Below the pieces are notes generated by a model. The model worked only from the letters and a program-made list of their open reading frames with translations. It did not search any database and was not told the DNA's origin. Source: Acanthochromis polyacanthus (Eukaryota; Chordata; Actinopteri; Pomacentridae). From it: a DNA stretch of 64,000 nt. The stretch covers positions 6,848,653-6,912,652 of the forward strand of contig NC_067131.1 of NCBI RefSeq assembly GCF_021347895.1, read 5' to 3'. Of the stretch, positions 10,844 to 60,679 are shown in pieces. How positions within the stretch are numbered: position 1 is the stretch's first letter; each line of letters begins with the position of its first letter. The position numbers and the translations under genes were made by a program.

Positions 10844-11380
10844 TCAGCTCTCCTGTTTCCCATCTAGACTCAGTGTGTTGGCCAAGGAGCACGTCATTAT
10901 CCGGCTGCTCTTTGGAGAGGTCCACGCTGGCTGCTGACAGGAGGAACTCTCCGTCCGGTAAATCTGTGCCCGAGTCTTAAACAAGCCGAAGCGAGCCGCG
11001 AGGAGGAAGAAGTCCTGTCTGAAGGTGCGGGTGAAGAAGGCGTACAGGAAGGGGTTCGAGCACGAGTTGATGGGGTAGAACAGGACCAGAAGGAGTTTGG
11101 AGTCGGAGACGGTGATGAGAGGGAGCTTGAGGGCCGCCGAGACGGCGAAGAAGGAGATGGGAGCCATGCAGATAAAGTCGGTGAAGATGAGGACGGCCAT
11201 GCGTTGAGCCACGCGGGTGTCGGCGTGGGCTGGTGCCGACGAAGGCTTGCGGAAAGTCAGGTAGATGCTCAGGTAGCAGCCGCAAACACAGAAGAAGGCC
11301 AGGATGTTGAGGAGGAGCAGGGATACAACGTAGACCTGCGACACCAGAGTCTCCACGTCCATGGGGAGGCAGATACTCAC
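10844..11380 (-). CDS. fshr: fshr terminal exon (ECL2 to C terminus)
   Basis: 537 nt, phase 0, acceptor CTGTTCAG, ending at TGA 10844-10846. It encodes [20 protein letters not shown] (ECL2/TM5), TM6 ([15 protein letters not shown]), TM7 with NPFLY, and a short tail with [10 protein letters not shown]. The tail is FSHR-like, not LHCGR-like. Confidence 0.95.
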
Positions 11381-14300
11381 CTGAACAGAAACATTCAGAA
11401 ATCACACAATGTTCAGGGGCCTTGGTGCACTTAATGTGGACCAGTCTTTATATTAGCAGATACAGCTTCATATTCAGATTATCAAAGAAATGAAGCAACT
11501 ACAAGTCAACTAGTGCACGTCGTATACGAATTATTCTGAAAATATCACACATTTCTTTAGCAAAACTGCACTCGTGGTCGAAATATTTAACATTCACACT
11601 CCGTAACTGCAGTTTTCAATTCCAGCGAGGAAACCTTGGCTGCATCTATCTCCCTCTGTGTGTTTTGCTGTCTCTCTTTAGGCTGCTCTCATTCTATCAA
11701 ATAAAGACAAGTACACCCAAAAGAAAAGAAAAGTAAGAAAACCAACAGAAAAACAAAACAGGCTCAAGGAATAGCACGAAAACTCTGCTGTTTCAGGAGC
11801 AGAGCTGAAACAATGTTGTTGATTGACAGAATTAATCAGCAACCTAACTGTGAAAGACATTTTTTCAAGCCAAAATGGCAAAAAATGTGGAGGTTCCAGG
11901 TTCTCAGATGTGAGAATGTGCTGCTGTTCCTTGTCTTACTTAACAGGAAATTGATATTCTATCAGTTTTTGGCTGCAAGATGGACAACAGAAGACATTTG
12001 AAGATGTTTTTGAGGCTCTAGGAATTCTTTTAACTGTTGCAAATTTCAAAGCCTATAAAGCATATTCTACATATTCTATTCAGAATTTGTGAGTTTATGC
12101 AAGATTTTGCTTCTCAAATTATCAGAATCAGAATCACTTTATTCTATACTATATAAATTATGTGGAACTGTGCACATTTTGAAAGACACATATACGTTGT
12201 GAGGAAAGCACAGAAGCATTAAATTGGAAGTGTGTCGGCTAAATGAAGGACCCACTTTGCCGTAGCTGCTGACCCCAACTGTGGGCAGCAATGCGGCCAG
12301 CGAGGAGAAGATCCAACCTGCTGCCATGATGATGCAGGCGTGTCTCAGGCGAAGCTTCTGGTCGAGCCGCAGAGCGTGTGTGATGGTGTGCCAGCGCTCC
12401 ACAGTGATCGCCATCAAAGTGAACACCGACAGCTCGCTGGCAAACACCTGCAGACGACACACAAACACACTGATTCACCTGCTGACACACATTGATGTGC
12501 GCGGTCGCTGGTTGTAGGCGATGACGTCGGCACGCACCGTGAAGAAGCCCGCGGCGTTGCACCCCAAACCCATCTGCCAGTCGATGGCGTGGTTGTAGTA
12601 CCGGCCACGGGTGAGCATGTCCACGGTTGCTATGACGACCAGGTAGATGCCCATGCAGAGGTCGGCAAAGGCCAAGTGGCACATGAGGAAACGAGGAACG
12701 GTCAGCTTGGAGCGGGTGCCTGATCGAACATTGGTGGAAAGAAAAAAAGTAAATAAATGTTATCAGTATAATGCACTCAATGTCTCAACAGCACTGTTTA
12801 CTGTCCAGCACCGTAGAATTAAAGGAGGAAAAGAAGGAATGAAAGCAGGAGAAAATGCCATGAGTTAATTTGAAGGGAAGTTTGCCTCACAGTACAAATA
12901 TTTAGCATCAAATTTGCACTTTAGTAGAGAACTCATCTAAAGTTTCCATCTGAAAGCCGAAATACAACAGCTGAAAAGCACTGACAGCACAAAACAGTAT
13001 TTGTTTTAGGGAGCCAAGTTTCACACGCAGCCAAAAACTTGCTCAGTAACAAAGCATGAATTCTGCCAATTATTTTTCCCTTTTCATACCTAACAGTACA
13101 AAGAGAACCACGGCGTTCCCCAGCAGCGCCAGAATGGAGATGATCCAGATGAGGACTCGTAAGAGGACGCCCGACATGATGTCCTCGCAGGGGTTAAAGT
13201 CGTCCGGCACCGGGGTGCAGGTGATGGAGGTGGAGTTGGAGCAACAGTCCCTGTAGAAGCGAGGATAATTCTTCGCGTTGGGGTCTTCGCACCATGAGTG
13301 CCAACAGGATCTGATGCACAACAACCCACACACCCGCACATGGATGTGAAAAAGCATTCATTTTTTTTCAGTTTATAGCAGCAAAACCTCCACTTCAGGG
13401 CCCTGTGGTAAAGTCTGGTAATTGACCAGCAATGGAGCCATAATGAGATATTAGGAGGAAAAGAAAAATTAAAACCTACAGTCACTCCCAGGAGAAGAAC
13501 TTTGTTTTTAATGAGCTTTAGAGTTGCCGGGAGGCATTTTTTAGTCTTTAGACGGAGCCAGGCTCGCTGTTTCTGCCTGCTTCCACTCTTTATGCTGAGC
13601 TAAACTAAGCAGCTCCAGCTCCAGAGTCACATTTAGTAGACTGATGTGAGAGACGTGCCAATGTCTTCAGGTAATTCTGGGCAACAAAGTGAACAAGAAG
13701 ATTCTCCCTAATTTTGTTCTATTCTTTAAATATGCCATATTATGCAAAATCCACGATCTCACAGTCTTTAACCCTCTGAACCCCAAGCTGTTTATGTATG
13801 TTTTCGCTTCATTTGTCCACATTTTTCCTCACAGCCGACTCATTTTTCACTGCAATATTAAGTCTTGCATCTCTATGGAAACTGCACACCTGTGTCTAGA
13901 AATATAGAGAATATTAAAAATGTTATCTATGCAGTATGATAAAGTTATGATGCCATAAATCATACCTATCTCCAACATTTTCCCAAAGGTGTTAACAATA
14001 CTGGAGAAAAAAGCAAACCGTGTATACTACAGATATTTTACTACTTGCATGTTGAATTTATTTTCCTACATGACTTCTATCTGCTCAATTTAAACACAGC
14101 CTGCACTTCATCTGAAGACTATCTGAATTTTTGTCACGTGGCTGTTGGTTGCATTTGAGTCACTAATGACTTCAAAGAATGATGGCAGAAATGTATCTAT
14201 TAATGTATCTATTTTTTAAAAATAAAACCTGACCCGAGTACATCTTTATTTTAAGTAAGTAAAATTTATGTATATAGCACATTTCACAGACATAAAATCA

Positions 14301-17300
14301 CAAAGGATAAAAACAATAAAGCTAAAGGTATTAAAGTGTTAAAACAGGGGAGCAGCAGCTAAAATAAGCACATTTTTAAATGAAACATGGAATAGAATAA
14401 CATGATATGTATGAAATTTCAAGCATTTCTGCTTAGTTTTTGGGCAATTTTCATAACCACTCAGCTTGTTATATATGAGTGGTTTTAGGGCCGTCAGGAA
14501 GCTAAAAATCGAACCGTTCTCTCTGTTTTTACAGATCAATGGTGTAACATTATAAATCCAACAATGCCTTTCAAACCCTCCACTGGATTTCAGGGTCCAG
14601 ATTATTAAGCATCGTAATGAGTCCCCTAGTGTTATTAGAGAGTGTCCTCTCGTTTTGTTCTTTTCTCTGTAGATCACAAAGTGTGTCTCTGAATGAGCAG
14701 TTTAGGTTTTTGCTGCCTGCTGTGATGTCACAAAAGGGACAAGCCTCGCCCCCCCTGTTGGCTCCTCCTCCTCTCTACTGTCAAAGCAGAGAGCCATGTC
14801 TGTGACCTTTAGACACACTGAAACAGCCTCTTTTGAACAGAGCTCAGACCGCACGTGGTAAAGAAACTGTAAAATTAACAAGCTCTGCAATATTTTTGAT
14901 CTGAAACTTTAAATTCACATCCCAGGGAGATGTGAGGCTTTCACCAACTTGTCAAAAAGAGGCATAATACGGGACGCTTTAATCATGGCAGGTACCTTTC
15001 TGCCAGCAGCACATGTACCTGTTTCTGTGCATGTTCTGGAAGGCGCAGCAGTGCGACGAGTACGTCAGATTGGCAAAGCGCAGCTTGGTGAAGAGGTGCA
15101 GGGGAGGAAGCTCTTTCAGGTGGAAGGCAGATTCTGCAAACAGCCTCGTGAGTCCGCCGAGGATGGAGTCTGGCAGAGAACTGAGGGCTGTTTGAGAGAT
15201 GTCCCTGCAGGAGCGAGCGCAAACAAAGGGGATTTAACAGGGGAGTAATTCTAGCTTCAGAATCCATTTTTAACAGATTCTTCTTCCATTTTATGCTCGC
15301 TACATGGGGATTTGATCAGGTCATAAAGCCTAAAAATGTAGGATTTAATAGAAGCGGCGTTTATTAAGAATAAATAGGACAGCAACATTTTAAGAACAAA
15401 ACAATGAAACTGATGGGAAGCCACTGTTTGATTGCCAAATGATTGCTGGAAGTGAGGGAAAAAACCATCACAGCAGTGGCAGCCCATAAGAAAAACAAAT
15501 ACTTTTGTGTGATTCCTGCTTCAATAGAAAAAGGTGCCTCTTTGTTTGGAGGATAAACAGGTAAGAAATCTCCCTCCGGTTATATTTCACTGACTTCCTC
15601 TCTTTCCGGATCTCTTTTTTAAACCTGAAACCTATCAAGTTTTCCCACTCATGTCACTTTGGTGTCTCCTACATCCTGAGCTTAATAAGTGAAGATGAGG
15701 AGGGTGAATCACGTAGGCATGAGTTTACTGCTGGATGTCATGCTTACAGCGTCACCAGCTCACTGGAACCCACAAAGGCGTTGGGATTGATGTGAGTAAG
15801 CTGTTGGTTGCCTTTTAGGGACCTTAGAGGAAAGAAGAAGAGGATGATGAAGAAGCAGAGAGAGAGAGAGAGGAATTAAATATGTACCATTTTTTAAAAT
15901 TGTTAATCTTCTGTTTGTAATTGTGTCTCTGCCGCTGACTCACAATTTTTTCATCTTTGTTCCGTTGAAGGCGTCACTTGCCACCTCCTTGATGCCATTT
16001 CTGGTGAGCCGTCTGTCATTGGAAAGAGGAGCCAAATTACAGTCATGTGGCTCCAACACGGAACATTCCCAAACAGTAAACTTATTTGAACTATCGACGC
16101 CAGTTTTAGTGTTTGCGCTTCTTCTGTTCCCAGTAACTAAAGCTGCACAAATACACAGAATTTCAGTCCAACACTAAGTAAATCAGCATTGTCTGTGCCA
16201 TCTTCTCTTCTTCTGTTTCTTACTTTTCGGCTATTTAACATTATTTACGGTGGAAACTGTAGTCGAACCGCATCTGTGGAGAGATTCTGCAGCGGTGGAA
16301 GAAATACTCAGAATCTTAGCATGAAATGTGACAGAAAATGTGCTTCTTTATATTCCGGATAAGATTGATGCTGCTCTTATTTCGGTCTACGTGAACACAG
16401 CGAGCAGGCGATAAGCTTATTATGAAGACTGGAAGCCAAAAGAACCAGCTAGTGTGGCTCCATCCAAAGTCTTAAAAAAATCCACCTACCACTATGACTT
16501 AATTAACACATTATATTGTTTTTGCAAGCATAACAACAAAAAAAAACCCTGAATTTTACAGGGGGTTATGTGCCAGACTGCTCACTGGCTGCCAGGTACA
16601 GCTACTTCCTTGAATATCTGGCAAGAAATACTCAGACACATCATGCCTGTAAAACCCGAATTTGTCATTTTCACACAGTAGTTTTTGAACAAACAAGACA
16701 CAACGCGTTAATTAGAGTTAATTAGTGAGCTTTAGACGTCCTGACAGGTGGATTTTGTTGTTTTCCTAAAGAGACAGACCAATTGTTTCTCCTTGTTTCC
16801 AGTCCACATGCTAAGCTAAGACAATCTGCTGTTGGCTATAGCTTCATATTTACCAGACAGACATGAGAAGGATATTTATAGTTTCATTTGATATTGAATA
16901 TTTGAAAGAAGTATGATCAGTTTAAGGAAAAAACACGAGCAGAACCAAGCCTATCACTGTTATTTTATTATATATTATAATATTAGGTTATTATAACTGA
17001 CACATTATACTATTAGCCATATTTAAGCTGTGTTTTGAAGGTGCAACAGTTTGATATTGGGATGATTTTAACTATTTTACCTTCTGTCAGGATGTTTAAA
17101 CTTAATAAATGCATCCTAAATGTCACATCTCAGTCGACTATTTTATTTGATTTAAAAAGTACCAATGGCTGTTAGAAAAAAGCTCCAGAAAAACATGAAA
17201 ATAAGCAGCAAGGCCACTTTATTTTGCACTTTACAATATATTGTGTATTTGAGCTGTAGTTGAAGTATGCTACTTTTTTTTGAATGAATCTCGTTTAGCT

Positions 17301-20300
17301 TTTTGCTTTGGTGATGGTAGCTTACATTTATGGATTGTATCGCCTTTAAATTACACTTTGTCCCTTTAAACTGGTATTTTAATTTAATTAAAAGTGCAAA
17401 AATCAGGTTTAATCCTTTAGTATTGTGCTCCAACTCAACCTCTGCCTCCTTTGAGTGGCATTAAAGAGTAAAGAAAAGGACAGAAAGGTAGAAGCATAAT
17501 GACAAAATCTTGTTCTACATTTTACAAAGTTGGAAAAATTGGAAACTTGGAGGTAATTTCTCCTCTAGCTGCAGCAATGCAAACTGTTCATCTGAGCGGA
17601 ATCACATGATTTTGGTACATTTAATTTAAACCAGTCACATTAAAGTTTTTTTGTAATTTAAATAAACAGAATTAAATTGAGTGTTACCAGTTAAAACGAT
17701 TCACTTAAGGGGATCTAATAAATATTTTTTGAGTGCTGAGGAGCTGACTTTAGAAATTACGGTAGTCTTATTACTTTCATTTTTAATTTATCTAAGCTTG
17801 TATTTTTTATATCAATATTACAATCTTTCTCTGTTAAATACACAAAAACAACTAAAAGATATGCATTGACTATCTTGCCACGAGAAAGCATCAAAATTTA
17901 AAGTATATATTCTGCTGATATAGGCCCTAGTTTCTGCTATATTATTATATCTGACACTATTAAACAAATTAATAATAAGTCTATAATTTAGTCTCTTGGT
18001 TGGGAAAATAAAATAAAGGCAGACAGGGCAGCCCTTATTTTTCCTCCTGGCAGGAAGTGTAAACAGGAAGTGAGGTGTTAAAGCAGGAACACCTGTGAGG
18101 TGAGTGGAGCAAACAAACATGGAGAACAGTAGAGTGAAATGATGGTTGGAGATTTAGGAGGGACTATCTTTGCTTTACTTTGAAATGTATTTAAGTGAAC
18201 AGAGTGTCTGCGGAACCCAGAATTAGCTGCATATGTGACATGTGATTCCTAAGAAAGTGTGACTGAGCTGATCCCAGGAGCAGGACTAAAACTTTTCATT
18301 CCACCTCCTCTGTGGCTGCTTGGATTACTGAATGGATATCTGTGACTCTGTTGGACCCTGGTTCAGGTAGGTCTTTATTTCTTACCAAATCTCCAGCCTT
18401 CTTCCTTTCCTATTGCCTCAGCTCAGACTACATTATCCTTTACCTTCATTAGCTTCTTCGGCCCTCACCAATTGAGATAAGTTGAACAAAATGAAAAGTG
18501 CAAGAAAACTGAAATGCTTTGAAATGATTCTTTCTTGAAGTGATATTATTTGAAGGTTTTTCTTATTTCATGAAGGAACTTTTGATTATTTTTACCGGGA
18601 CACAATCATTTTTTTTTTGTCTGTTTCTGATATTTTGTTGGGTTTCTGTTGATTGGATGGAGATTTGTTCTGTTTGATTTGGACTGGAGTGGTATTTAAC
18701 CTGAGTTTTTAAAAAGGAAGATGAAATTGGATGACTATGGTTCTCTTCTATCTTGTGTGGTTTTGGTATCTTTTTGTATGCATGTTTTAAAATGAAAAGT
18801 AAAGAATCATCTTCATGCTATGGAGCTTGGCTGTTAACTCAGTTTGACTAATTTGAACATTATGGATGTCTCTCTGCTACGCTGCAAAGTTTCATGAGAT
18901 AAATCATAATAAATTAAAGGAAGGAGAACAAAAGAAGAGGTTTTGCTTCATAAATCAATTTCATCTTTTGTTTTTTTTCTCTGATCTTTTGTGTTTTTGC
19001 TAAGCAGTGAATAATTCTTGAGGCCTTCAACAGGGAGCCTAGAAATGAAATCAGTAAATCTTTGAATTGCTATTGACTCCTGAACATCTAAAGGGGAACA
19101 AACAAGATGCAGATATATTTTAAGTGTCTTTTTGAGAACCACTGGTTTCATGTTGAATCATCCAGTTTTTCAGAAGCTTTCAGAAATGTGTGGTTTTGGT
19201 TTAAATCTTAATCCTCCAAATAAACAGCAGCGGTTGTCGTCAGATAAATGCAATGTTTTAAAAAGCGCATTTCCCTCTGAAATGCAGTACAATGAAGATA
19301 TAAAGAGGCATTAAAGGTAAGTGCTTAACTAAAGACAACAACTTCATAATTGCTCTCAAGTGCGGCACTTCAGTAAGTCTCATCGCTCTCCACCACTGAT
19401 TTAGCATTCTATCAGTTACACAAGAAAAGCAAATTAATGACCTATACATGAAGCAAAACTGGAGTACATTTCAGTCTGGCTCGATTCGTGATCTTCAGCA
19501 GGATTCGTGATCTGCAGTTCAAAAGGAAAAGTGGGGGGAAAAAAAAACAAAATGAAAGGCGTCGTACAGAAGTGCTAGAAATGCAAAAAAAAAGGGAGAC
19601 CAGTAGGAGAAGATAGACTCAGTAAAGAGGGCAGAGAGCATTTCAGGGAACATTCATCACAGCGCATGAGATGCCCACTCGGATCTGTGTGAGGGTGTTT
19701 CTAAAAAAGAAAAAAAGACGAATCCCTTACATCTCCATGAAGGTTTGAGTGCAGAGGCCTCTGAAGGCATTGGCGGGGACTTTCTCGATGTGGCTGTTCT
19801 CCTCCAGGTCGCTAAGCAGCACAAAGAGCAAAAACACTAGGATGAATAGTGTGTTTCTGAGCAGAGAAATTACAGAAATATGCAGGTTTCGGGTGCAAAA
19901 CAGTAGGAATATGTATCAGAATGCGCGCCACAAGCTCTATTAAATCCACTTTCTTTTTGAAGCTGATAGATGTCAGATGGCAGACAGTCTGAATGTGGAT
20001 TTTTTTAAGGCTGGGGACAGATGGTTTGCATCCCTGATATTCTGCTTCTGCAAGAACTACTCATCATTTCCACTGCAGTATTGTATGTTTGATGGTGGGA
20101 TTTCTTCTGGGCATATTTAATTCTGCATGCATACAGCAGCCTATGAATTCAGGTGCATGTGGGATTAATAGTGTGTGTGTGTGGGGGGGTGTAGTTGTAG
20201 TTCATATCAGTATTATACTGGGACTTACAGCAGAAATCGGTTAGCCGTGGAGTGGATCTTGGAGAAATCCGGAAAGATTCTCAGCCCAGTGCTGGAGATG

Positions 20301-23300
20301 GTCCTGTGATGTAAAGATTAAACCACCAAATGTTACTATGCTCACACTGCAACCTCCAAAAAAAAAAAGAGACACTTTGTGCAGTGCTAAAGTCACACAC
20401 GCACACAGCCACAATGCAGTATTCATTTGTGTTAACTGAGATAAAAATTAACAAGTGAAAAGAATCCGAAACAATTTAGAGAGAAGCTTAGGTGGCAGAC
20501 AGATGAATCAGATATTCTGTATCTCTAAAATATTTCGACGCTGATTAATGAGAAAGTTGCTGTGAGTTTGGAAATAATAAGCAGCTCTGTGAGGTTTTTA
20601 TGGTCTCAGTGGTGTTTCAGTTTAAAGTCTCCCACTGGACAGATTAAACCCAGAAAAACTCATCTCTGTTTATCTAAGTTGCAGAATTAGAAGGTTATTT
20701 TTCATGAAAATGATAATTTCCAGCCCTAAAATGTCTTTCTTTAGTGTGTGGATCTATGAAGTCCCCTACTTGCCTCTCTTGGCTACTTGGTGCAGCTCGA
20801 GCACACCAGCTCAGCTCACTTCAAAGCCTGGAAAACTCCTCTGCAATGGCAAGATGTAATATTTGTTTGAACTGGAAACCAATTCTAAAGAAAACTAGTG
20901 ATACAGAAAGCTCCACCCTTCAACCTGACAGGATTGGGTCTGTAGTTTTGTGACATATGAAACTCTTGAATTCCAGTTCTGTGTTTTTCAAACGACCATC
21001 GGTTCACTGCAGTGTGAAGGTAGAAAAGCTCAGTCGTGGTCCTGACTGCATATTTTGCACCGGATGTGATTTCTAGTACTATGTTCTTTATGTACTAATC
21101 ACCATATGGCCTTGCCACCAAAGTTAAAGGCCTCATTTTCACCAGAGGGCTAGCTGCTAGCTAGTAGAACTAACCAATGCTTATGGTAAGCAGGTATAAA
21201 TATATAGCTTGTTTAGCTTCCTAGTTTACGGTGTTCGCATGCCAACAAGACATAAGAACACCATAAAAATGCCAGAACTGATGAAATATCTTTAGTTTTG
21301 CATGCATTTGGGTTGAAATCAAAGTATTGACTGAGAATCATCAAATTAGTATGGAACCGTGAATATCTGAACCAAATTTAATGGGAATTCTTGCAATACT
21401 TGTGAAGACTTTTCAGTGAAAACCACAAATATCATAATCATTGTAGCTTTACAGAAAAGGCCAGAGCATCAAGAGTAATGCTGAATGTCTGTACAAACTT
21501 TTATGGTATTTATACACTATTTATTTGGATGTTTAGTCAATGTGGAACAACGGACTAATTCATTATGACTGCCATCTATAGAGCTGCATTGCAAGCATTG
21601 TCTGTTTTGAAATCAATATGGAACTATATTTTGAGGTAACATTTCTAATTAAGCAACATGATTAGGATCTTTTCTTGATGCCATCTCTACATTTATCCAT
21701 GTATCAAAAAGTGACAGTGATTCTGAATACATGCAAGCTCAGACACCTTTTTTTTTTTTTTTTTTTAGTTTTACCGACTCTTCTCTACTTTATGCATCAC
21801 TGACTAATCTAGAAAATCTTCCATAGGGTGACAAAGTTGTGAAAAGAGCTTTTGGCAGGATGGTGTGGGATGTCAGTATCTGACTGTCACTATATAAAAA
21901 GAGCATTTTCCAGGTAAATAGATTCCTTTGTCAGTTTCTCATGCCTCCTCTCTGTGGATCGTCCTTGACTGTCTCTCCTTTCTGCTGTCTTTTTCGTCTG
22001 CATTTCTCTCCATATCTGCCTCCTGTCCACTCTTCAGCTTTTGAATGCTGAACAACCTGAAAATATGGCTATGTCTGAAACTTCTTATCATTTGTGGCTT
22101 GCGGTGCTGGCCAGCTGAAATACTCAGACCTATACGTGTCAAGATAGTGAAAGAATTTAGTTCAGATCCTTGTATTACATTACACTGTAAGCAGGGGTGT
22201 CATGCATTCTGAGTTTTACGAGTCATAGTTAAAAAAAAAAAAAAAAAATCATACAATTGTATTTCACAACATAGCTTACATAGAGTGCATTTAATTAATC
22301 TTTTTTTTAACATTCTTGATGAAAAGCGCACATTTCAGCTGCCATGATATCAGATTTTCACTGTTATTGTGGCCTTGGTAGTTCACAATACTATTGCAGT
22401 ATCTACAGAATTATCCTGTCAGTCGAATTCATCTTTTCATTGATTCTTTATTATGTGTTTTCGGTCTTTTTTGCAACTGAACTGCACGGAAAGTGTGAGT
22501 ATAGGAGGTCTGTAACTAAAACTGTATTGTATGTTGTTCATATGTTCCTGTGTGATTATGTGATTATTATTAATATAAATACAATATTTCATTTTTTAAA
22601 GATCACAATTATCTTTTATTCTGGTACATCGCAACACATTCAGTGCCTATTTTGACAGTTTTTTCTGATTCATTATTGCATTTAACAGCTACATTGAAAA
22701 TGAAAATGTTGGTGAGTTTACGTGGACAAATGTGTCCTGTAGTTACTGTTTCTACTTGCACTATGCAGCTCTTGTCTCTTCATAGAAAGTCTCTTGTTCA
22801 TCTCTAGTTTTGTAGGATCTTCTACACTACTGCATTCTTTATTTGACAAATACAAAAACTTAGCTGCTATTAGCGACAAAAGAAAACAAGCTGACACTAA
22901 TGTTAGCTGCTAAAATCACTTTTACTAAGAAATGCTTTATAATTCAACCAAAAGTTCCTTTCCTGTGTCTTGTTTAATTGATTTTAATATCATATGGACA
23001 TAATGGTGACATTCCTTTTTTAGAGCAACATTTTTAAGGACTGAGAAATTGGGTGTGCAGACAGAGAGATGAGCCTCTTTTAATCTGTTTTTAGATCCAC
23101 CTTTGCTTTGTATTAAACCTCTACACAAACAAATTGCAACTGTGAAACTGCTTCTTCTTTTCCTATTTCATTGTTCTTGTACTAAGGTGCCCTTATTATC
23201 AAGTTCAATAGCTTAAAAAAAGTACTGTCATCACAGAGCGCTGCGTTTATGTGTCCCAGTTTTCACAAATTGGGACAAAATAGAGCAGTAATAGTGAGAG

Positions 23301-26300
23301 ATTTCAGCAATGCACTGTCCTTATAAACAGCTATACTGAGATCGCTTCAAAACAATTCATTTTTCTTGCAACAAATAAGATGTAGCATCTTTAAATGGTT
23401 TGTTGAAACACAAAGATTTCTTTTTTATCCTTGGAATGAAGTGTGACATTTGAATTCTCTTCCAGAGGGATCCAAGCTGATTAAAAAGTAATGTCTCTGG
23501 TCGTGTGGGCCATCAAAAGTAGGCCTGTCACCCATGACCCATTTTGGACTCACAATCACTTCAAAAAACACAAACTGAAGTAGAAAGTGTTTGTCTTTGG
23601 TGCACTCTGGCTGAGTACTCACAAAAACTGCAGTTTTGTAATGTTCCTGAAAGCATCTGGGTGGATGAAACTCAGGTGTTTTGACTTTGTTATGATTCTG
23701 AAAGAAACACATCCAGTCATGTGTTCATTAATATAAATGGCTACAGCTGTAATTACAGCCTTTCACTGCTGCCAGTTATACTTACATCTCGTTGAGTTCA
23801 GGAAGATCTGAGAAAGCAAAAGCCTCGATACGTTCCAAAGCAACATTTCCAGATATTGAGCTGAGACAAAACACAAGAATATGACATGTATTTAAAAACT
23901 GAAGGTGTCAGGCCTTCATCCACACTTCTTCTTTGGAACATTTTGTCTCCACAACAGTGCCAAGCAACTATTTGGGTGATCTCTTAGTTCCATTGTAAAG
24001 ACTAAACACACAAAAGCACGTTGGTAAAATATTTTCTATGCAGTGGCATTTCCAAATGGGTATACTCACACGTAAGTGAGCCGAGGGAGGCTGGTAAAGG
24101 TGAACGCACTGATGCTCTGCAACATGTCGTTCTCTAATATGGTTCTAAGGTTGGAAATAAAGAAGAAAGATGAAAAAGTGAAAGATATGAATACTGGTAG
24201 AGCATTTTATTGGCATTTCAGTCACAAACAACACAGAACATATCAGTAATAGTAATCCTACAACTGTAGTTTAAGAAGATCACTACTCATGACACAAATA
24301 AAAAAAACAAGTGAGCACTCAGAGAGCACAGCACTCTATCATGGCTGCTAAGTTGTATCATTTCTGATGGCTGAAATCTTTAAAAAAAATGTGGCAGAAA
24401 TCATGGCACCATAGAATGTGGCCATTTAATATAGATGTACCCACAAACAAAATTACCTTGAACTGATCACAGATATGTGTTATGTACGGACACCGAATCG
24501 TGTGACCTAAATATGTAGCCGGTGGCAGGAATTGATGGGGCTCAGAAACATCCCTACAATTTAATCAGTTGTTCTTTTTGTCATTTCAGTTGATTTGTAG
24601 TAGGATCACAATCATGTGATCATCATCAGCAGCTGACGCAGTGTTCATTTGTCATCATAGTTATAGTGACGCCGTGCTGCTATCGTCAATGATACAGAAA
24701 TCTTTAACAAATTCGTGGATCCAGACTGTAAGCCGCATCACTGCCAAAATCTATTGAAGTGGTCCTTGTGTCATTTCTGACCTTCCCTGATAATTTCATC
24801 CAAATTCATCGGTCAGTTATTGAGTAATGCTGCTAACAGACAGACAGACAGACAGACAAACATACAGACAGTCAAACCGACGGCGCTGGTCACATAACTC
24901 CACAGAGGCTCCTCCTCCTTGCCAGAGTAAAAAGGCCAAAAAAAACAACAGATCACTTATATCCAGCGCAAAAATTTAAAACTAAAACCAGGCCTTTGGT
25001 CAGTACATGAAAGTTCAAGTACGTCATATTTCTGCTTTGGTGTACTTCACAGTTGTAATTCTCTTGCTCTAAATATTATAGATCTCTATAGATGTGATGC
25101 ATCTTTAAACCTGAGGATAAATAATGACAGTTAACACAAAAGTAATCAAACAGATTTTACTTTGTCAGCATCTAGGTGGATGAAACTCAGGTGTTTTGAC
25201 TTTGTTATGATTCTGAAAGAAACACATCCAGTCATGTGTTCATTAATATAAATGGCTACAGCTGTAATTACAGCCTTTCACTGCTGCCAGTTATACTTAC
25301 ATCTTTGTGAGCTCAGGGAGATCTGAGAAAGCAGAAGTCTCGATACGTTCCAAAGCAACATTTCCAGATATTGAGCTGAGACAAAACACAAGAATATGAC
25401 ATGTTCATCCACAAATTACACACAAATTACAAGAGACAAACGTGCAATACTTTCATAATGTGCAATAAGAATTTTATAAATTGTTGTGTTTTTTGTTGTT
25501 TTTTTCTGTATATCTGCATTTAATTTTAATTTAATTAAACTTTAGTGTAATTTATTTCAGGGTTCTTGTTTCTTTTTAATTGTTGGTAAATTGTTCTTTG
25601 GGCTTTGTTGCTTTTTTTTGCATCGAAACATTCAGAGTTAATATTATTATGCAGTTCAGCAGGAAATTCATCTGCAAGAATTTTGTCTTTTCAAATTGGA
25701 CTCTTGGAAACTGTAAAATACATTTTTCACTATTTTCTGACATTTTGTGGACTAAGCAATTAATCTAAAATAGAATAAAAGACTAATCAGTAACTGAAAT
25801 AAAACCAACACATTAGTAGCAGCAAAAATATCTGTAGTTTCACAATGTTCCTGAAAGCATCTGGGTGGATGAAACTCAGGTGTTTTGCCTTTATTTTGAT
25901 TCTGAAAGAAACACATTCAGTCATGTGTTCATTAATATAAATGGCTACAGCTGTAATTACACCCTTTCACTGCTGCCAGTTATACTTACATCTTAGTGAG
26001 TTCAGGGAGATCTGAGAAAGCGAAAGCCTCGATACGTTCCAAAGCAACATTTCCAGATATTGAGCTGAGCGAAAACACAAGAATATGACATGTATTTAAA
26101 AACTGAAGGTGTCAGTCCTTCAGTCACACTTATTCTTTGGAACACTGAGATCATCCAAATACTCGAGTGATTTTGTAGCTCTTCTTGTTCCATTGCAAAG
26201 ACTGAACACAAAAGCACATCAGATAAAATATGTTTCAGTATATGCAGTGGCATTTCCAAATGTGCATACTCACACGTAAGTGAGCCGAGGGAGGCTGGCA

Positions 26301-29300
26301 AAGGCGAAGGCAGTGATCTTTTGCAACACGTCGTTCTTTAATATGGTTCTAAGGTTGGAAATGAAGAAGAGAAGACGAAGAAGTGAAAGATATGAATACT
26401 GGTAGAGACACTACTAATCTCACAGCAGAAGTTTTTAGATGGTAAAAAGCATCATGAAGGCCAAAAACAACAAGAAGAAGCTTATATCCAATGCAAGTAT
26501 TTGACTGCAAGTATTTAGCACTTAAATCAAGCCTTTGTTCTTTGAATAAAAGTTCAAACTAATCTTTTTTTATGCCTTGTTGCTGTTGGAAAATTGTGGC
26601 TTTCATGCTCCAAAGTATAAATAATGACAGCTAACTAACATGCAAAGCTTGTATCGTTATGCAATTCATCAGTCAGCAGGAAATTCAGCTGCAACAAATT
26701 TAGTGTTTGAACACTAAAGGATATTTTAAACTATTTTCTGATCAATTCATAGACTAAATAATTAATCCAAAATTAAAAATAATAATACCAAAAAATAAAA
26801 ATAAGTCATGCAAATTCTATTTCAAAGCAAAAAATAAAAATCTAAATCAGAAACTGTTTTATTGCCAAGTAGTTTTTCACATGTGAGGAATTCAGTGTTT
26901 TAGTGCAGAACAACAAACGGCAAAATATAGATTTTTCTAAAAAAAAAAGTGTTGCAAGTGTTGACGGTTAAATTAGTCAAATTAGCACCAAGTGTATCCA
27001 GAGAATATACTTCTATATACAAATACTTCCAGTGTGCAGGAATGTGCAAATGAAACACCTGACAGTGTTACACACTATGTAGTGTAAACACCTTGAAATG
27101 TGCAAAATCATTAGAATAAAAACAAAATTCCCATCTGTTGACTGTTTTGCATTTTCAACATAAGTGCAAATTACAAATGCAAGCTGGGAATACAAATATA
27201 TCAACACAGAATTACTACCATTGTACTGCAATTACTTATCTAAAATTAGGCTGTTTTACCAGGAATAGCACAAGATTTCTCCGCCCTCTGTTTGGATGAT
27301 CCGTATCTTTTTGTGTTTTGACCTCCTCGCCTCATTATCCTCCACATCAAAGAATAAACATGAGCAGCAGACACACACTCACAGATTCCAGAGGTGCTGC
27401 AGGCTGCTGAGGGCACGCTGAGGAATCACTCTGATCTTCGTCTGATTCACTTCCCTGTGGATGCACAAACAGCCACTCACACCCAGCTCTCAGCAACGCA
27501 ACTGATCACAGGGATGGAAAATCATTAGTGGACATTTTTTTACCCCCCAGTATGTCATTGGGGACGTGGGTGGGATACAGATTTTCCAACTTCTTTTTTG
27601 CATGAATAATGAAATACGACCATGACCAGCTACTCATGTATTTCCTTTTCATGCATGACACAAACTCCTTTGAAAGTCGACACAAGAGCCCAAGATTTTT
27701 TTTTCGCATCTGCTTGGACATCCACTGCTGCGTACTTGTACATTTCCCTTTCTGTTCCAGAGCCTTGACCTTCTAGTGGAGCAGAACTGATGAGAACACA
27801 CGCATCGTCGCATGGGAGTTCGCACAGCGCCTCTTGGGAATACTTCCACTGCAAAAGCATGTCCTTGTCTTAGTGCGTGCGTGTGTGTTTGTGCATCAGC
27901 TGTATTTGTTGGTATGCCTTTGGGAGATTACCTATAGCTAAAGTGTTCTTGTGTACGTCTGGCTGCCAGTTTGAGCAAAAAAAAAAACCAAAACGCTCCA
28001 GACGATCCTAATATTTCCTCTGGAAGGCCTTGAGATTCCTCGACGGCCAAAACAACAGGTGAGTGTTTACTCCGAGCAGGCAATCACCTTCAGCTCTGTG
28101 CCATTGTGTCAAGGACACCGGAGCTGCTTGCACCACCTTCAATCAACTTTTTGGAAGTTTACGGCGACACCTTGAAAACTTTCTAGAGAAAGAAAACGAC
28201 AGTCTTGCTGGGAGCTCGCGTCTGTATGCTAAACATGAAGCGAGCGCCTGCAGCCTTTCTGAAGGGGCCTTTCTTCACATAAAACGACTAACGTGGTTCA
28301 TGCAGAGGTAAGTTGAAAATGCTGTACGAGCAGCTTTGAAGCTCACGTGGACTCTCATCAGTTTCATGTGCCCTAAGTGTAAAACACAGGCCAGGTTTAC
28401 ATGAAGTTTTTTAATTCGGAATTAACTCATTCGGAATTAACGTTTTGTGCTTTGCGTTTACATGGAAATATCCCCTTCCTTAATTCCGCTTTAACGCTTG
28501 GGCATTGGAAAGGATTCTGATTGGACAGGGAGTGGACGTGATGTATCCCTGTTTACCGGAAGAAAACAAACTCCATTTGCCGTAGCATTTCTTTTCCCCA
28601 ACAACATGGAGTAACAACTAATAAGCACGCTTTTTGCTTTGCTTTTTATTGTAGTTTTGAAACAGCATCTCGACAATGGCGTACTACTTCTGCTGCAGAA
28701 CGTGTACGTCGCTACGTCATCGCTACATGAGGAGCCAAGCATGACCGAAATGAACTAAAGCAGAATTAACTGTATACATGAATAGAAAGTACACAGAAAT
28801 TAGTTTATTCGGAACTCACATGACAATAAGCCAGGTAGTTTATTCTGAATTAACGTTTTAATTCAGAATTAAGTGTTTACAAGGAGATTTTAAAGCAGAA
28901 TTAACTTTAATTCCGAATTAAAGAGGAGTTAAAGGTCTCATGTAAACGTGGCCACAGTGACAGAACCAGGCTAGCTGCTTGAATTCGCACGCCGCTGCCC
29001 CCCAGTTTCATTCAACAAAAAAATGGAGTGGGAATTTTAAAAAAAAAAAGAAGACTTCAAGCTAGCAGATGTAGATGCAAACAGCCCACGTCGTTTCCTT
29101 GCAAAACATTGGATGTGAACTTCACATTTGTTTGTTTACAAGAAAACTCCTCGGGGCATCTTTAACCCGTGCCTGCTCGGTGGCCAACGGTGGCTGAGGC
29201 GGCGAGGATGAGCAGACACGCTTTGCATACATTCCCTCTCCTAATGACTGCTTAATAGAACCAGCGTTGGCAAATTCACTGCGTAATTTCAGCCAAGAGG

Positions 29301-30779
29301 AGATGAGTGCGGATTAGGAGGAAAGTCGAAATGATTATGCATGCTTACGAGATGGGACTGTGAATTGTAAACACTGCACAGATCCCGAATCTGTGTTTGT
29401 GTTGAATGGGAGGTAGCATTCAGACACGTGTTCTCTGTAATACTGACCTACTGCAGGTCGTTTGCAGGGATGCTGCAAGCTTTACACCTTTAAGAGAGTT
29501 TGCTCATCATAAAAAAGTGCTCCTCGGGCAGTTGTATGTATTCTGTTGCTCCGAAAAAGCTTTTAAAGCCTGAAAGATAACCCCAAATGGCACCATTAGG
29601 CCTCATACAAACCGGAGGTGTGGAGTTTGAGAGATGTGGGCATTTAGCAGAAATGGAGGTCTGTTGAGTTGAACTATTGGAAACGTGGGATCAAGTGTGT
29701 GTGGAGTTTGGCTCGAGCAAGACACTGAAAGGATATTTGAGCTCTGCTGCTTTCTTTATGTCTTGTGACTCTCAAAATGGGAGTGAATTTTCAGAGTACA
29801 AAGTGCAAAAATCTTCCAAGAACTGAGCTCTACAAGCAGGCGTTTAACCAAACTGCAGTTCATTTTTAAGGGTTGATGGAACAACAAAATCATAAAACTA
29901 ATTTAAAAAATGGACAGATCTTGTCGATTCTGTCATGAAAAATGGTACCTAAAAGGCTACTTTGTGGTTAACAAACAGAAGGGGATTAAATTACTAGAAG
30001 AGCAGGATTATTAATACCTTTAATGCCACAAAACAACTTAACCCTCATCTCGTCCTGCAGGTCAAAATTGACCCGTTTTAAAGTTTGAAAATGTGGGAAA
30101 AAACATATTTTCACAGTGACACTTCTGATGTCCACATTTTCAACATTTTGGGGAAATTTTTTAACATTTTTTTGGGGACAAAAGAAATGTCAAAAATGTT
30201 TAAGAACATTCACAAAAAATCAATCATGATTGTTTTGTGAATGTTCTTAAAGAAAATTTGAGAAGTTTTACTGACATATGTAATCAGTTTAGATATTATT
30301 AGGATTTTTTTTGAAGATTTTTACTCTTTGAAAACATTCACGAGAATTGTCTTGCCAAATTTGTTTTTTTTAAAATAAAACTTTTAGGGGAAACTTTCAA
30401 GGAATTATTGGAATTTTCTCCCTGAAGGTTTGCAAATTTTTGCTGAATTTTTGGATTTTTTTCAGACAAGGAAACAATATTTTTTGGTGTCCATAAATGA
30501 GGACAACAGGAGGGTTAATATTGGATTTGCTGCAGAGTTACAGATGTGTGCATCCTCTTGCGTGTTTGTGTGTACTCACAGGCACTGGATGCTCCTGGGG
30601 ATGTTGGATGGAATCTCTGTGGCCCCAAACGGCACCTTGTAGCACGGGTCCTGGGTTTGTTTGGTCAAACCGGCATTAGGTCCAGATTTATTGTCCACTT
30701 CATAACCAGGCGCGAAGGCTGCTGCCACCTTTATCACCACCGCCACCAGCATTATTAGCCTCATCACCACCATCATCAT
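10844..30779 (-). CDS. fshr: Follicle-stimulating hormone receptor, 17-exon model
   Basis: FSHR is a leucine-rich-repeat G-protein-coupled receptor of gonadal somatic cells that binds FSH and signals through Gs and cAMP. Seventeen phase-compatible exons give 779 residues: signal peptide (1 to about 21), a short cysteine cap, an LRR array (about 67-400), hinge with FNPCEDIM (about 440), seven membrane helices and a short tail. ERW ends helix 3; NPFLY is in helix 7. The C terminus ([10 protein letters not shown]) and gonadotropin-receptor cysteines fit FSHR rather than LHCGR. Two features differ from mammals: three introns split the membrane domain, and the LRR exons are tandemly duplicated (X', A', A'', X, A). 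Skipping X', A' and A'' gives 704 residues and 14 exons, which I recall as the usual percomorph form. Confidence 0.93.
12117..12152. repeat. LINE 3'-tail fragment
   Basis: The motif CAGAATCAGAATCACTTTAT at 12123-12142 resembles the 3' end of non-LTR retrotransposons common in fish. Nothing else of the element is visible. It lies in the last fshr intron. Confidence 0.4.
12256..12447 (-). CDS. fshr: fshr TM3-TM4 exon
   Basis: 192 nt, phase 0-0, acceptor TCTGCAG, donor CAAA|GTGGGT. It encodes [20 protein letters not shown] (ERW is the receptor's counterpart of DRY), ICL2 and TM4 through VGVSSYGK. Confidence 0.93.
12538..12719 (-). CDS. fshr: fshr TM2-TM3 exon
   Basis: 182 nt, phase 1 to phase 0, acceptor GATCAG, donor CACG|GTGCGT. 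It encodes [23 protein letters not shown]1 ([11 protein letters not shown]) and the start of TM3 (GCNAAGFFT). Confidence 0.93.
13090..13310 (-). CDS. fshr: fshr hinge and TM1 exon
   Basis: 221 nt, phase 2 to phase 1, acceptor TGCATCAG, donor TTAG|GTATGA. It encodes the hinge ([20 protein letters not shown] and EDIM) and the first transmembrane helix ([19 protein letters not shown]). Mammals encode this and all following exons as one exon. Confidence 0.93.
13580..13670. repeat. Fold-back repeat family fragment (arm)
   Basis: GACGGAGCCAGGCTCGCTG and the TTTATGCTGAGCTAAACTAA block match one arm of a fold-back element seen more fully at 16380-16910, 36420-36915 and 54440-54775. It is an interspersed fish repeat that I cannot name. 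Confidence 0.5.
13768..14180 (+). repeat. TTAACCCTCTGAAC interspersed repeat, copy 1
   Basis: This shares several blocks with 49330-49780 on the opposite strand: the TTAACCCTCTGAAC end, GCATCTCTATGGAAAC, AAACACAGCCTGCACTTCA and TGAATTTTTGTCACGTGGCT. Non-coding and probably a degenerate DNA transposon; it lies in an fshr intron. Confidence 0.6.
14240..14340. repeat. Interspersed repeat fragment
   Basis: AGTAAGTAAAATTTATGTAT followed by AGCACATTTCACAGACATAA resembles a widespread fish retrotransposon 3' region. Only about 100 bp remain. Confidence 0.45.
15019..15204 (-). CDS. fshr: fshr exon 9 equivalent (last LRRs, hinge cysteines)
   Basis: 186 nt, exactly the length of mammalian FSHR exon 9, phase 2-2, acceptor CCTGCAG, donor ACAG|GTACAT. 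It encodes the C-terminal LRRs ([20 protein letters not shown] ...) and the SSHCCAF hinge cysteine cluster with HRN. Confidence 0.93.
15748..15822 (-). CDS. fshr: fshr LRR exon (mammalian exon 8 equivalent)
   Basis: 75 nt, phase 2-2, acceptor CTCTAAG, donor CGCT|GTAAGC. It encodes [20 protein letters not shown] then ELVTL. Only about 120 bp separate it from the preceding exon. Confidence 0.92.
15944..16012 (-). CDS. fshr: fshr LRR exon (mammalian exon 7 equivalent)
   Basis: 69 nt, phase 2-2, acceptor ATGACAG, donor AATT|GTGAGT. It encodes [20 protein letters not shown] then KK. The NGT glycosylation sequon matches the conserved one in mammalian FSHR. Confidence 0.92.
16013..19730. other. fshr intron between LRR exons
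   Basis: A 3.7 kb intron. Apart from the fold-back repeat at 16380-16910 it is AT-rich sequence in which I see no exon or conserved element. Confidence 0.5.
16380..16910. repeat. Fold-back repeat, fuller copy
   Basis: The left arm contains CAGCTAGTGTGGCTCCATCC and TTAATTAACACATTATATTG. The right arm carries the inverse (GTTAATTAGTGAGCTTTAGA, CATGCTAAGCTAAGAC). The inverted arms enclose about 200 bp. Non-coding, in an fshr intron. Confidence 0.55.
19731..19811 (-). CDS. fshr: fshr LRR exon (mammalian exon 6 equivalent)
   Basis: 81 nt, phase 2-2, acceptor CTGCTTAG, donor AGAT|GTAAGG. It encodes [20 protein letters not shown] then TQTFMEI; it is slightly longer than the mammalian exon. Confidence 0.92.
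20229..20303 (-). CDS. fshr: fshr LRR exon (mammalian exon 5 equivalent)
   Basis: 75 nt, phase 2-2, acceptor CATCACAG, donor TGCT|GTAAGT. It encodes [20 protein letters not shown] then NRFLL, a conserved glycoprotein-hormone-receptor LRR. Confidence 0.92.
20304..23622. other. fshr intron between exon B and the next LRR exon
   Basis: A 3.3 kb intron with a T run (about 21747-21766), an A run (22233-22248) and a retrotransposon-like fragment at 21150-21450. No exon was recognised. Confidence 0.5.
21150..21450. repeat. Diverged fish interspersed repeat
   Basis: The stretch AACCGTGAATATCTGAACCA and AATTTAATGGGAATTC, preceded by a GTTTTGCATGCATTTGGG block, resembles a highly abundant fish repeat with the phrase CATGAATGTCTGTACCAAAT. 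Divergence is high, so the call is tentative. Confidence 0.4.
23623..23697 (-). CDS. fshr: fshr LRR exon B
   Basis: 75 nt, phase 2-2, acceptor TTCTTTCAG, donor TTTTT|GTGAGT. It encodes [20 protein letters not shown] then LQFL, equivalent to mammalian exon 4. This is the only one of three copies with a working donor. Confidence 0.92.
23786..23860 (-). CDS. fshr: fshr LRR exon A
   Basis: 75 nt, phase 2-2, acceptor TGTCTCAG, donor AGAT|GTAAGT. It encodes [20 protein letters not shown] then ELNEI. This is the extra LRR of percomorph FSHR relative to mammals, as I recall from sea bass and tilapia. Confidence 0.9.
24070..24144 (-). CDS. fshr: fshr LRR exon X
   Basis: 75 nt, phase 2-2, acceptor AACCTTAG, donor ACGT|GTGAGT. 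It encodes [20 protein letters not shown] then RLTYV. It corresponds to mammalian exon 3 in size and position. Confidence 0.9.
24640..24915. repeat. Interspersed repeat with (CAGA)n tail
   Basis: AATTTCATCCAAATTCATCG, TAATGCTGCTAACAGACAGA and GGCGCTGGTCACATAACTCC are typical of a non-LTR-like fish repeat. It lies between exons X and A'' and may have helped the local duplications. Confidence 0.55.
25167..25212 (-). pseudogene. Truncated relic of fshr exon B (B'')
   Basis: About 45 nt of exon B with its acceptor remain, reading [10 protein letters not shown] and then running into unrelated sequence with a stop codon and no donor. It marks one breakpoint of the A''-B'' duplication. Confidence 0.8.
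25301..25375 (-). CDS. fshr: fshr LRR exon A'' (second duplicate of exon A)
   Basis: 75 nt, phase 2-2, acceptor TGTCTCAG, donor AGAT|GTAAGT. It encodes [20 protein letters not shown] then ELTKI. It differs from exon A at 7 of 75 positions and from A' at 5. The duplicated block around it is short (about 25167-25411). Confidence 0.82.
25827..25901 (-). pseudogene. Relic of fshr exon B (B')
   Basis: The first 60-70 nt match exon B (23623-23697), including the acceptor and [13 protein letters not shown]. The donor is destroyed: CAGTTTTT|GTGAG has become CAGATATTTTTGCTGC, with no GT nearby. It lies 88 bp downstream of exon A', exactly the A-to-B spacing, so it was duplicated together with A' and then died. 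Confidence 0.8.
25990..26064 (-). CDS. fshr: fshr LRR exon A' (duplicate of exon A)
   Basis: 75 nt, phase 2-2, acceptor CGCTCAG, donor AGAT|GTAAGT. It encodes [20 protein letters not shown] then ELTKI. It differs from exon A (23786-23860) at 5 of 75 positions. Functional splice signals are present, so it is probably used. Confidence 0.82.
26274..26348 (-). CDS. fshr: fshr LRR exon X' (duplicate of exon X)
   Basis: 75 nt, phase 2-2, acceptor AACCTTAG, donor ACGT|GTGAGT. It encodes [20 protein letters not shown] and RLTYV, a canonical LRR. It differs from exon X (24070-24144) at 9 of 75 positions, seven of them amino-acid changing. Splice sites and reading frame are intact. Confidence 0.82.
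27383..27454 (-). CDS. fshr: fshr exon 2 (LRR)
   Basis: 72 nt, phase 2 on both sides, acceptor CCACAG, donor AATCT|GTGAGT. It encodes [20 protein letters not shown] followed by LWNL, the first leucine-rich repeat, the same length as mammalian exon 2. Confidence 0.9.
28389..28953. mobile_element. Inverted-repeat MITE with TTTACATG termini
   Basis: The left end GGCCAGGTTTACATGA is inverted at the right end as GGCCACGTTTACATGA. Both sides carry subterminal AATTCGGAATTAA-type repeats. It is about 565 bp and non-coding. Superfamily is uncertain because no clear target-site duplication is visible. Confidence 0.75.
30042..30514. mobile_element. TTAA-targeting MITE (piggyBac-like ends), copy 2
   Basis: A 473 bp element flanked by TTAA at 30038-30041 and 30515-30518, with ends CCCTCATCTCGTCCTGCAGG and, inverted, CCCTCCTGTTGTCCTCATTT. 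It contains the same GGGTCAAnnTTGACCC-like core as copy 1, in the opposite orientation. It lies in fshr intron 1. Confidence 0.85.
30580..30779 (-). CDS. fshr: fshr exon 1 (signal peptide, cysteine cap)
   Basis: 200 nt ending in phase 2 at the donor GCCT|GTGAGT. Three ATGs in a row (30779, 30776, 30773) precede a hydrophobic signal peptide ([19 protein letters not shown]). The mature start carries only two cysteines (DPCYKV ... SIQCL), fewer than the four of mammalian FSHR, as I recall for other fish. The frame stays open upstream to another ATG at 30914, but that extension is hydrophilic and would bury the signal peptide, so I reject it as the start. Confidence 0.88.

Positions 30780-39526: not shown

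Positions 39527-60679
<21,153 letters not shown>

What the first reader, a model, noticed from the sequence alone, without database searches (positions are those of the whole stretch)
23623..26348. Tandem expansion of LRR exons in the FSH receptor ectodomain
Seen directly: five 75 nt exons (X' 26274-26348, A' 25990-26064, A'' 25301-25375, X 24070-24144, A 23786-23860) precede exon B, all in phase 2-2 with intact AG acceptors and GT donors, and all encoding good LRRs. As I recall, mammals have one exon in this place and studied percomorphs two (X and A). If all are spliced in, the hormone-binding solenoid gains three repeats (779 versus about 704 residues). Symmetric phases also allow isoforms of different LRR number. 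This is a natural test of how ectodomain length affects gonadotropin binding.
Basis: partly seen in the sequence, partly recalled or inferred. Interest (0 to 1): 0.88.

Follow-up and report, generated by a model that had tools for sequence, protein, structure and literature searches.

The report
Tripled exon unit in damselfish FSHR
In the spiny chromis damselfish, one stretch of the gene for the follicle-stimulating hormone receptor has been copied in tandem, leaving three extra exons that look usable, but the known receptor sequence does not include them and whether the fish ever uses them is untested.

Summary
The five 75-nt exons lie at the stated minus-strand coordinates, phase 2-2, with AG/GT ends and open frames; splicing all gives 779 residues. 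The gene is fshr of Acanthochromis polyacanthus: the form using only X, A and B equals the 704-residue database protein P0001. Amphiprion ocellaris models hold two different X-type and A-type sequences, so misassembly is unlikely. None of 8 pomacentrid models retrieved has more than one X and one A, and X' shows no purifying selection against X. Yet the extra exons' splice signals match those of the used exons, and mackerel and tuna FSHRs carry one extra repeat (2 of 99 anchored proteins). Most likely the 704-residue form is the main product, with the extras skipped or minor. An FSHR of variable repeat number is open, not shown.

The parts
30580..30779 (-). fshr exon 1 (signal peptide, N-terminal box)
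   Evidence: identical to P0001 residues 1-66
27383..27454 (-). fshr exon 2 (first small LRR exon)
   Evidence: in P0001
26274..26348 (-). X', extra LRR exon, unit 1
   Evidence: 9 of 75 nt differ from X; absent from P0001, a cut form in P0006
25990..26064 (-). A', extra LRR exon, unit 1
   Evidence: 5 of 75 nt differ from A
25827..25901 (-). B', copy of exon B with a B-like acceptor but TTTGCT where B has its donor GTGAGT
   Evidence: homology to unit 3 ends at its 3' end
25627..25802 (-). start of unit 2: copy of sequence upstream of X' (26637-26804), 66% identical
   Evidence: 66.8 bits; best of 50 shuffles 32.6
25301..25375 (-). A'', extra LRR exon, unit 2 (which has no X)
   Evidence: 7 of 75 nt differ from A while the A-B intron is identical over 88 nt
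25167..25212 (-). B'', truncated copy of exon B, no donor
24932..25073 (-). start of unit 3: copy of sequence upstream of X' (26457-26614), 63% identical
   Evidence: 51.1 bits; best of 50 shuffles 32.6
24070..24144 (-). X, LRR exon present in most related fish FSHRs retrieved and absent in human FSHR
23786..23860 (-). A, LRR exon (aligns with human residues 77-100, the exon-3 repeat by recall)
23623..23697 (-). B, intact LRR exon (aligns with human residues 102-125, the exon-4 repeat by recall)
15019..20303 (-). fshr exons 5-9 (20303-20229, 19811-19731, 16012-15944, 15822-15748, 15204-15019), rest of LRR domain
10844..13310 (-). fshr exons 10-13 (13310-13090, 12719-12538, 12447-12256, 11380-10844), hinge and seven-helix domain split by three introns
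   Evidence: 7tm_1 in P0001

Best explanation
The region is intron 2 of fshr in Acanthochromis polyacanthus, in which a unit of about 1 kb (upstream sequence, X, A and B up to its donor) was tandemly repeated to three units. Unit 3, next to exon 5, is complete and makes the receptor. In units 1 and 2 the copy of B ends at or inside the exon and has no donor (shown), most simply because the duplication breakpoint fell there (inferred). Unit 2 also has no X (shown), lost or never copied. What remains upstream is X', A' and A'', open and correctly phased (shown). I think the main mRNA joins exon 2 to X-A-B and gives the 704-residue receptor, while X', A' and A'' are skipped or included only at a low level (inferred). 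The A copies have been partly homogenised by gene conversion (inferred from the mosaic divergence).
For: The exons without X', A' and A'' spliced in silico give exactly P0001, the 704-aa A. polyacanthus FSHR held by ncbi, uniref and nr, with no isoform label in its ncbi name and 18 cluster members (the other members were not visible). None of 8 pomacentrid models (P0001-P0006, P0008, P0054) has more than one X-type and one A-type exon; P0004 and P0054 have no X-type and P0008 has neither. 76 of 99 anchored proteins (of 169 retrieved) have exactly the X-A-B length and none exceeds one extra repeat. B' and B'' lack donors. X'/X: pN 0.125, pS 0.124. Upstream repeats mark three units. The X-A intron differs 22% between units 1 and 3, but the A-B intron 2.3%: mosaic.
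Against: The donors of X', A' and A'' score the same as those of X and A, and their acceptors are alike, so nothing at the splice sites explains skipping. The three extra exons have no stop, indel or splice-site loss; in a rough neutral simulation one exon survives intact with probability about 0.25 at a per-copy divergence of 0.13. Exon A differs less between units 1 and 3 than the X-A intron (5/75 against 45/204, P = 0.0025; for X 9/75, P = 0.06), though conversion could explain that. P0001 is a database entry whose transcript support I could not see.
Confidence: 0.55

Rival explanations
1. Alternative splicing: X', A' and A'' are cassette exons, or X'-A' replaces X-A, so the fish makes FSHR forms with different numbers or faces of LRRs, perhaps by tissue or season.
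For: All phases are 2-2 and splice signals alike. UniRef model P0003 of Amphiprion ocellaris joins an X'-type to an A'-type to B, and P0006 of A. polyacanthus joins a cut X' to A and B. Extra copies occur in two genera. LRR-by-exon modularity as a basis for alternative splicing is described for NLR proteins, NLRP3 above all (PMC6642158, abstract and outline seen).
Against: P0003 and P0006 look computational: both lack exon 2, P0003 reads into sequence upstream of X', and P0006 lacks exon 8. No RNA evidence was available. X' shows no purifying selection against X.
Confidence: 0.3
2. All five exons are constitutively spliced and the receptor is the 779-residue form with three more repeats.
For: Open frames, intact splice sites and the 779-aa model. 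One extra repeat is annotated in Scomber and Thunnus (727 and 726 aa), and AlphaFold2 puts the tuna ectodomain in one regular solenoid, with 10-residue blocks from 61 to 280 at mean pLDDT 90-96 and strands about 25 residues apart.
Against: The database protein of the same species is the 704-aa form. 0 of 99 anchored proteins have more than one extra repeat.
Confidence: 0.1
3. Assembly artefact: collapsed or mis-joined haplotypes produced the repeated block.
For: The A-A'' block is 96.6% identical over 238 nt.
Against: Two different X-type and two different A-type sequences also occur in Amphiprion ocellaris models (P0002, P0003). Units 1 and 3 differ by 22% in the X-A intron, more than I would expect between haplotypes.
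Confidence: 0.03

Closest known systems
Percomorph FSHR with exons X-A-B (for example Dicentrarchus labrax P0009, Oreochromis niloticus P0013)
   Same: Same gene, same repeat order and same 75-residue X-A-B stretch.
   Different: They show one X and one A; the window holds two X-type and three A-type exons.
Scombrid FSHR with an extra LRR (Scomber scombrus P0025, 727 aa; Thunnus maccoyii P0027, 726 aa)
   Same: An additional 25-residue repeat between X and B, so extra LRR gain has a precedent in this receptor.
   Different: One extra repeat, and it is in the annotated protein; its sequence is diverged and it is probably an independent event (inferred).
Human FSHR (PDB 8i2h) and Chanos chanos FSHR (P0138)
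   Same: Same receptor family and solenoid.
   Different: No X: one repeat fewer.
LRR exon modularity with alternative splicing (NLRP3, PMC6642158, abstract and outline seen)
   Same: Repeats coded by separate exons, which permits splicing of whole repeats.
   Different: There, according to the abstract, isoforms were shown; here they are not.

Membership tests
Follicle-stimulating hormone receptor (fshr) | LRR ectodomain fused to a rhodopsin-type seven-helix domain | tested here: met
   P0001, identical to the window's X-A-B form, has 7tm_1 and LRR_8
Follicle-stimulating hormone receptor (fshr) | Closest named relatives are FSHR | tested here: met
   P0001 and near relatives such as Oreochromis niloticus P0013 are named follicle-stimulating hormone receptor by ncbi; many UniRef-only hits are labelled thyrotropin receptor
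Follicle-stimulating hormone receptor (fshr) | Closer to solved FSHR than to solved LHCGR | tested here: inconclusive
   8i2h FSHR 665.1 bits, 7fii LHCGR 662.1 bits: too close to decide
Follicle-stimulating hormone receptor (fshr) | Neighbour of nrxn1 | tested here: inconclusive
   Laminin G domain exons at 55538-55972 and 60450-60935 on the same strand; that they are nrxn1 is inferred, and they lie 5' of fshr here while the passage of PMC4536197 puts nrxn1 at the 3' side
Tandem exon duplication | Adjacent homologous exons of equal length and phase | tested here: met
Tandem exon duplication | Present in more than one genome | tested here: met
   Two X-type and two A-type sequences in Amphiprion ocellaris protein models; no DNA of that species was available
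Alternatively or mutually exclusively spliced exons | Transcripts that use the alternative copies | not testable with these tools
   No RNA data held; only protein models P0003 and P0006
FSHR with enlarged LRR solenoid | Mature mRNA contains X', A' and A'' together with X and A | tested here: inconclusive
   0 of 8 pomacentrid protein models contain them together; transcripts not examined

The most novel reading that the evidence does not exclude
Damselfishes make an accordion FSH receptor: by including zero to three extra LRR exons (X', A', A'') in gonadal mRNA they vary the length of the hormone-binding solenoid, and with it FSH/LH selectivity, within one species.
Probability: 0.22. Interest if true: 0.78.

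Novelty: new member of a known kind. Interest (0 to 1): 0.45.

Why it matters
LRR number varies little in glycoprotein hormone receptors (eel and mammalian gonadotropin receptors are given 11 LRRs in PMC4536197, passage). A living fish whose gene holds three spare, in-frame repeats beside the working ones would allow a direct test of how ectodomain length affects gonadotropin binding, and it shows how such repeats can be gained: a tandem duplication that ends at a splice donor adds repeats in frame. If the extras are never used, it is a case of exon copies that keep good splice sites yet are skipped, which is a splicing question in itself.

Tried and rejected
Misassembly was considered and judged unlikely. 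A claim that exon A'' evolves faster than its introns (7 of 75 against 1 of 163 in the 238-nt block, P = 0.0015) was not used as proof of selection, because three of the seven positions (58, 69, 71) are shared with A' and point to conversion. Purifying selection on the extra exons could not be shown: A pairs have pN/pS about 0.2 to 0.6, but A itself is constrained, and X'/X is about 1. Literature: 10 searches; judged by titles and abstract starts, none listed a paper on extra LRR exons in damselfish fshr; the library lacks most subscription journals, so this is weak. PMC5066260 (clownfish transcriptome, passages) has no hit for fshr. A PDB search with exon B alone gave only weak WNK3 kinase matches (best E 0.73).

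Fold comparison with PDB was not run. Its result says nothing direct about the window's protein.

Full report
What is there. The minus strand of the window carries a complete 17-exon reading of fshr from 30779 to 10844.

After A' lies B' (25901-25827) and after A'' lies B'' (from 25212). Both begin like exon B behind a B-like acceptor, but B' reads TTTGCT where B has its donor GTGAGT, and B'' loses homology inside the exon. Unit 1 matches unit 3 from 26407-25827 to 24202-23623 (87.6% over 589 aligned positions), so the match stops at the 3' end of exon B; unit 2 matches unit 3 over 238 nt (96.6%) and stops inside B. Sequence from upstream of X' recurs about 25 nt after B' (26804-26637 to 25802-25627, 66%) and about 95 nt after B'' (26614-26457 to 25073-24932, 63%); these score 66.8 and 51.1 bits against a best of 32.6 in 50 simple shuffles each. 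So I read three tandem units, each starting upstream of X and ending at or within B. Unit 2 has no X, and unit 3 is complete. The donorless B copies are best explained by the duplication breakpoint (inferred).

Which organism and gene. The X-A-B form equals P0001, Acanthochromis polyacanthus FSHR, over all 704 residues. The fshr qPCR primers published for this species (PMC5757642, passages seen) match the window exactly and span 11028-11122.

Is it real in other fish? In Amphiprion ocellaris, P0002 and P0003 hold different X-type and A-type sequences. P0002 fits X and A (23 of 24 each; 18 of 24 to X', 21 of 24 to A'). P0003's A-type fits A' (23 of 24; 21 of 24 to A), but its X-type fits X' only narrowly better than X (21 against 20 of 24), by V7, K10 and A15. 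In that species the A-type copies of P0002, P0003 and P0004 share ALKRIEAF, whereas the three A. polyacanthus copies read ALERIE (A and A' ALERIEAF, A'' ALERIETS). That fits homogenisation within each species, but these are computed protein models and no Amphiprion DNA was available. Stegastes partitus P0054 and Amphiprion percula P0008 show no sign of extra copies, but both models are irregular.

Are the extra repeats in the receptor? None of 8 pomacentrid models (P0001-P0006, P0008, P0054) contains more than one X-type and one A-type exon. Of 169 proteins retrieved, 99 had recognisable exon-2 and exon-5/6 anchors: 76 have 75 residues between them (X, A, B), 10 have 50, 2 have 100 (Scomber, Thunnus), and 11 have other lengths from shortened or irregular models (25 in 2, 38, 47, 52, 56 in 2, 61, 66, 67 in 2); none approaches the 150 that the full array would give. 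The 70 without anchors were dropped from this count; they include unrelated LRR proteins and models lacking exon 2. The 169 are cluster representatives from the best-120 lists of three capped searches, so longer forms hidden in clusters or lower lists are not excluded. The search limited to residues 65-260 of the 779-aa form listed no longer pomacentrid form among its best 120 of 206.

Selection and age. Between units 1 and 3, differences are 3/58 upstream of X, 9/75 in X, 45/204 with 3 gap events in the X-A intron, 5/75 in A, 2/88 in the A-B intron and 9/75 in B. The 22% in the intron suggests an old duplication; the near-identity around A suggests that conversion, or constraint, has acted there. 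X'/X gives pN 0.125 and pS 0.124 from 9 changes; A'/A gives 0.037 and 0.173; A''/A 0.083 and 0.142; A'/A'' 0.037 and 0.167. Donorless B' differs from B as much as X' from X, so X' shows no sign of constraint. Against that, a neutral simulation (crude, 20000 draws per setting, with an indel rate taken from the X-A intron) gives about 0.25 for one exon staying open with both splice sites and no indel at a divergence of 0.13, and about 0.58 at 0.05; three survivors are therefore mildly in favour of use.

Structural plausibility. Human FSHR (8i2h) aligns with about one repeat fewer than P0001: two matched stretches overlap on the chain. The tuna protein with one extra repeat is predicted as one even solenoid, with 10-residue blocks from 61 to 280 at mean pLDDT 90 to 96 and strands starting at 64, 88, 113, 138, 163 and 188 (32 sequences; whole-protein mean pLDDT 64.4 because the rest is poor). 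Adding repeats at this place is physically reasonable.

Known background. PMC4536197 (passages) gives eel, gar and elephant shark fshr 10 exons, as in human, and says that salmonid and percomorph fshr have several additional exons. Exon modularity of LRR domains and its splicing consequences are described in PMC6642158 (abstract and outline). Ten searches of an open-licence library listed no paper on extra LRR exons in damselfish fshr, judged by titles and abstract starts.

Verdict. A real tandem exon-unit triplication in fshr, with extra copies in at least two damselfish genera, ordinary in kind but unusual in place. The claim of a 779-residue receptor is not shown and runs against the database protein of the same species; use of the extra exons in minor or regulated isoforms stays open, because their splice signals are as good as those of the used exons.

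Noticed in passing
window 11028-11122: The fshr qPCR amplicon of PMC5757642 (95 bp; primers described there as intron-spanning) lies wholly inside the last exon of the model, so those expression data cannot distinguish ectodomain isoforms and could amplify genomic DNA.
   Followed up: yes
window 13310-10844: The seven-helix region is split by three introns (exons 10-13), unlike the single large last exon described for eel and human fshr in PMC4536197.
   Followed up: partly
window 55538-55972 and 60450-60935, minus strand: Laminin G domain exons upstream of fshr on the same strand, presumably nrxn1.
   Followed up: partly
window 24836-24871 and surroundings: A 4-base tandem repeat (ACAG) inside the sequence that separates B'' from X; the stretch may be a transposable element insertion in unit 3 (not tested).
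   Followed up: no
window about 28400-28950: Repeated TTAATTCCGAATTAA-like motifs in intron 1 (seen by eye); looks like a small mobile element.
   Followed up: no
P0025 and P0027 (Scomber, Thunnus): Scombrid FSHRs carry one additional LRR between X and B in the annotated protein, an apparently separate repeat gain.
   Followed up: partly
P0084 (Polymixia lowei) and P0058 (Centroberyx gerrardi): Both have the X-A-B length, so exon X seems older than percomorphs (placement of these fish outside percomorphs is recalled).
   Followed up: no
P0147 (628 aa, source eukprot): A tuna-like FSHR model that lacks the second A-type repeat, exon B and exon 5, plus exon 8; possibly an exon-skipped isoform or an annotation fault.
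   Followed up: no
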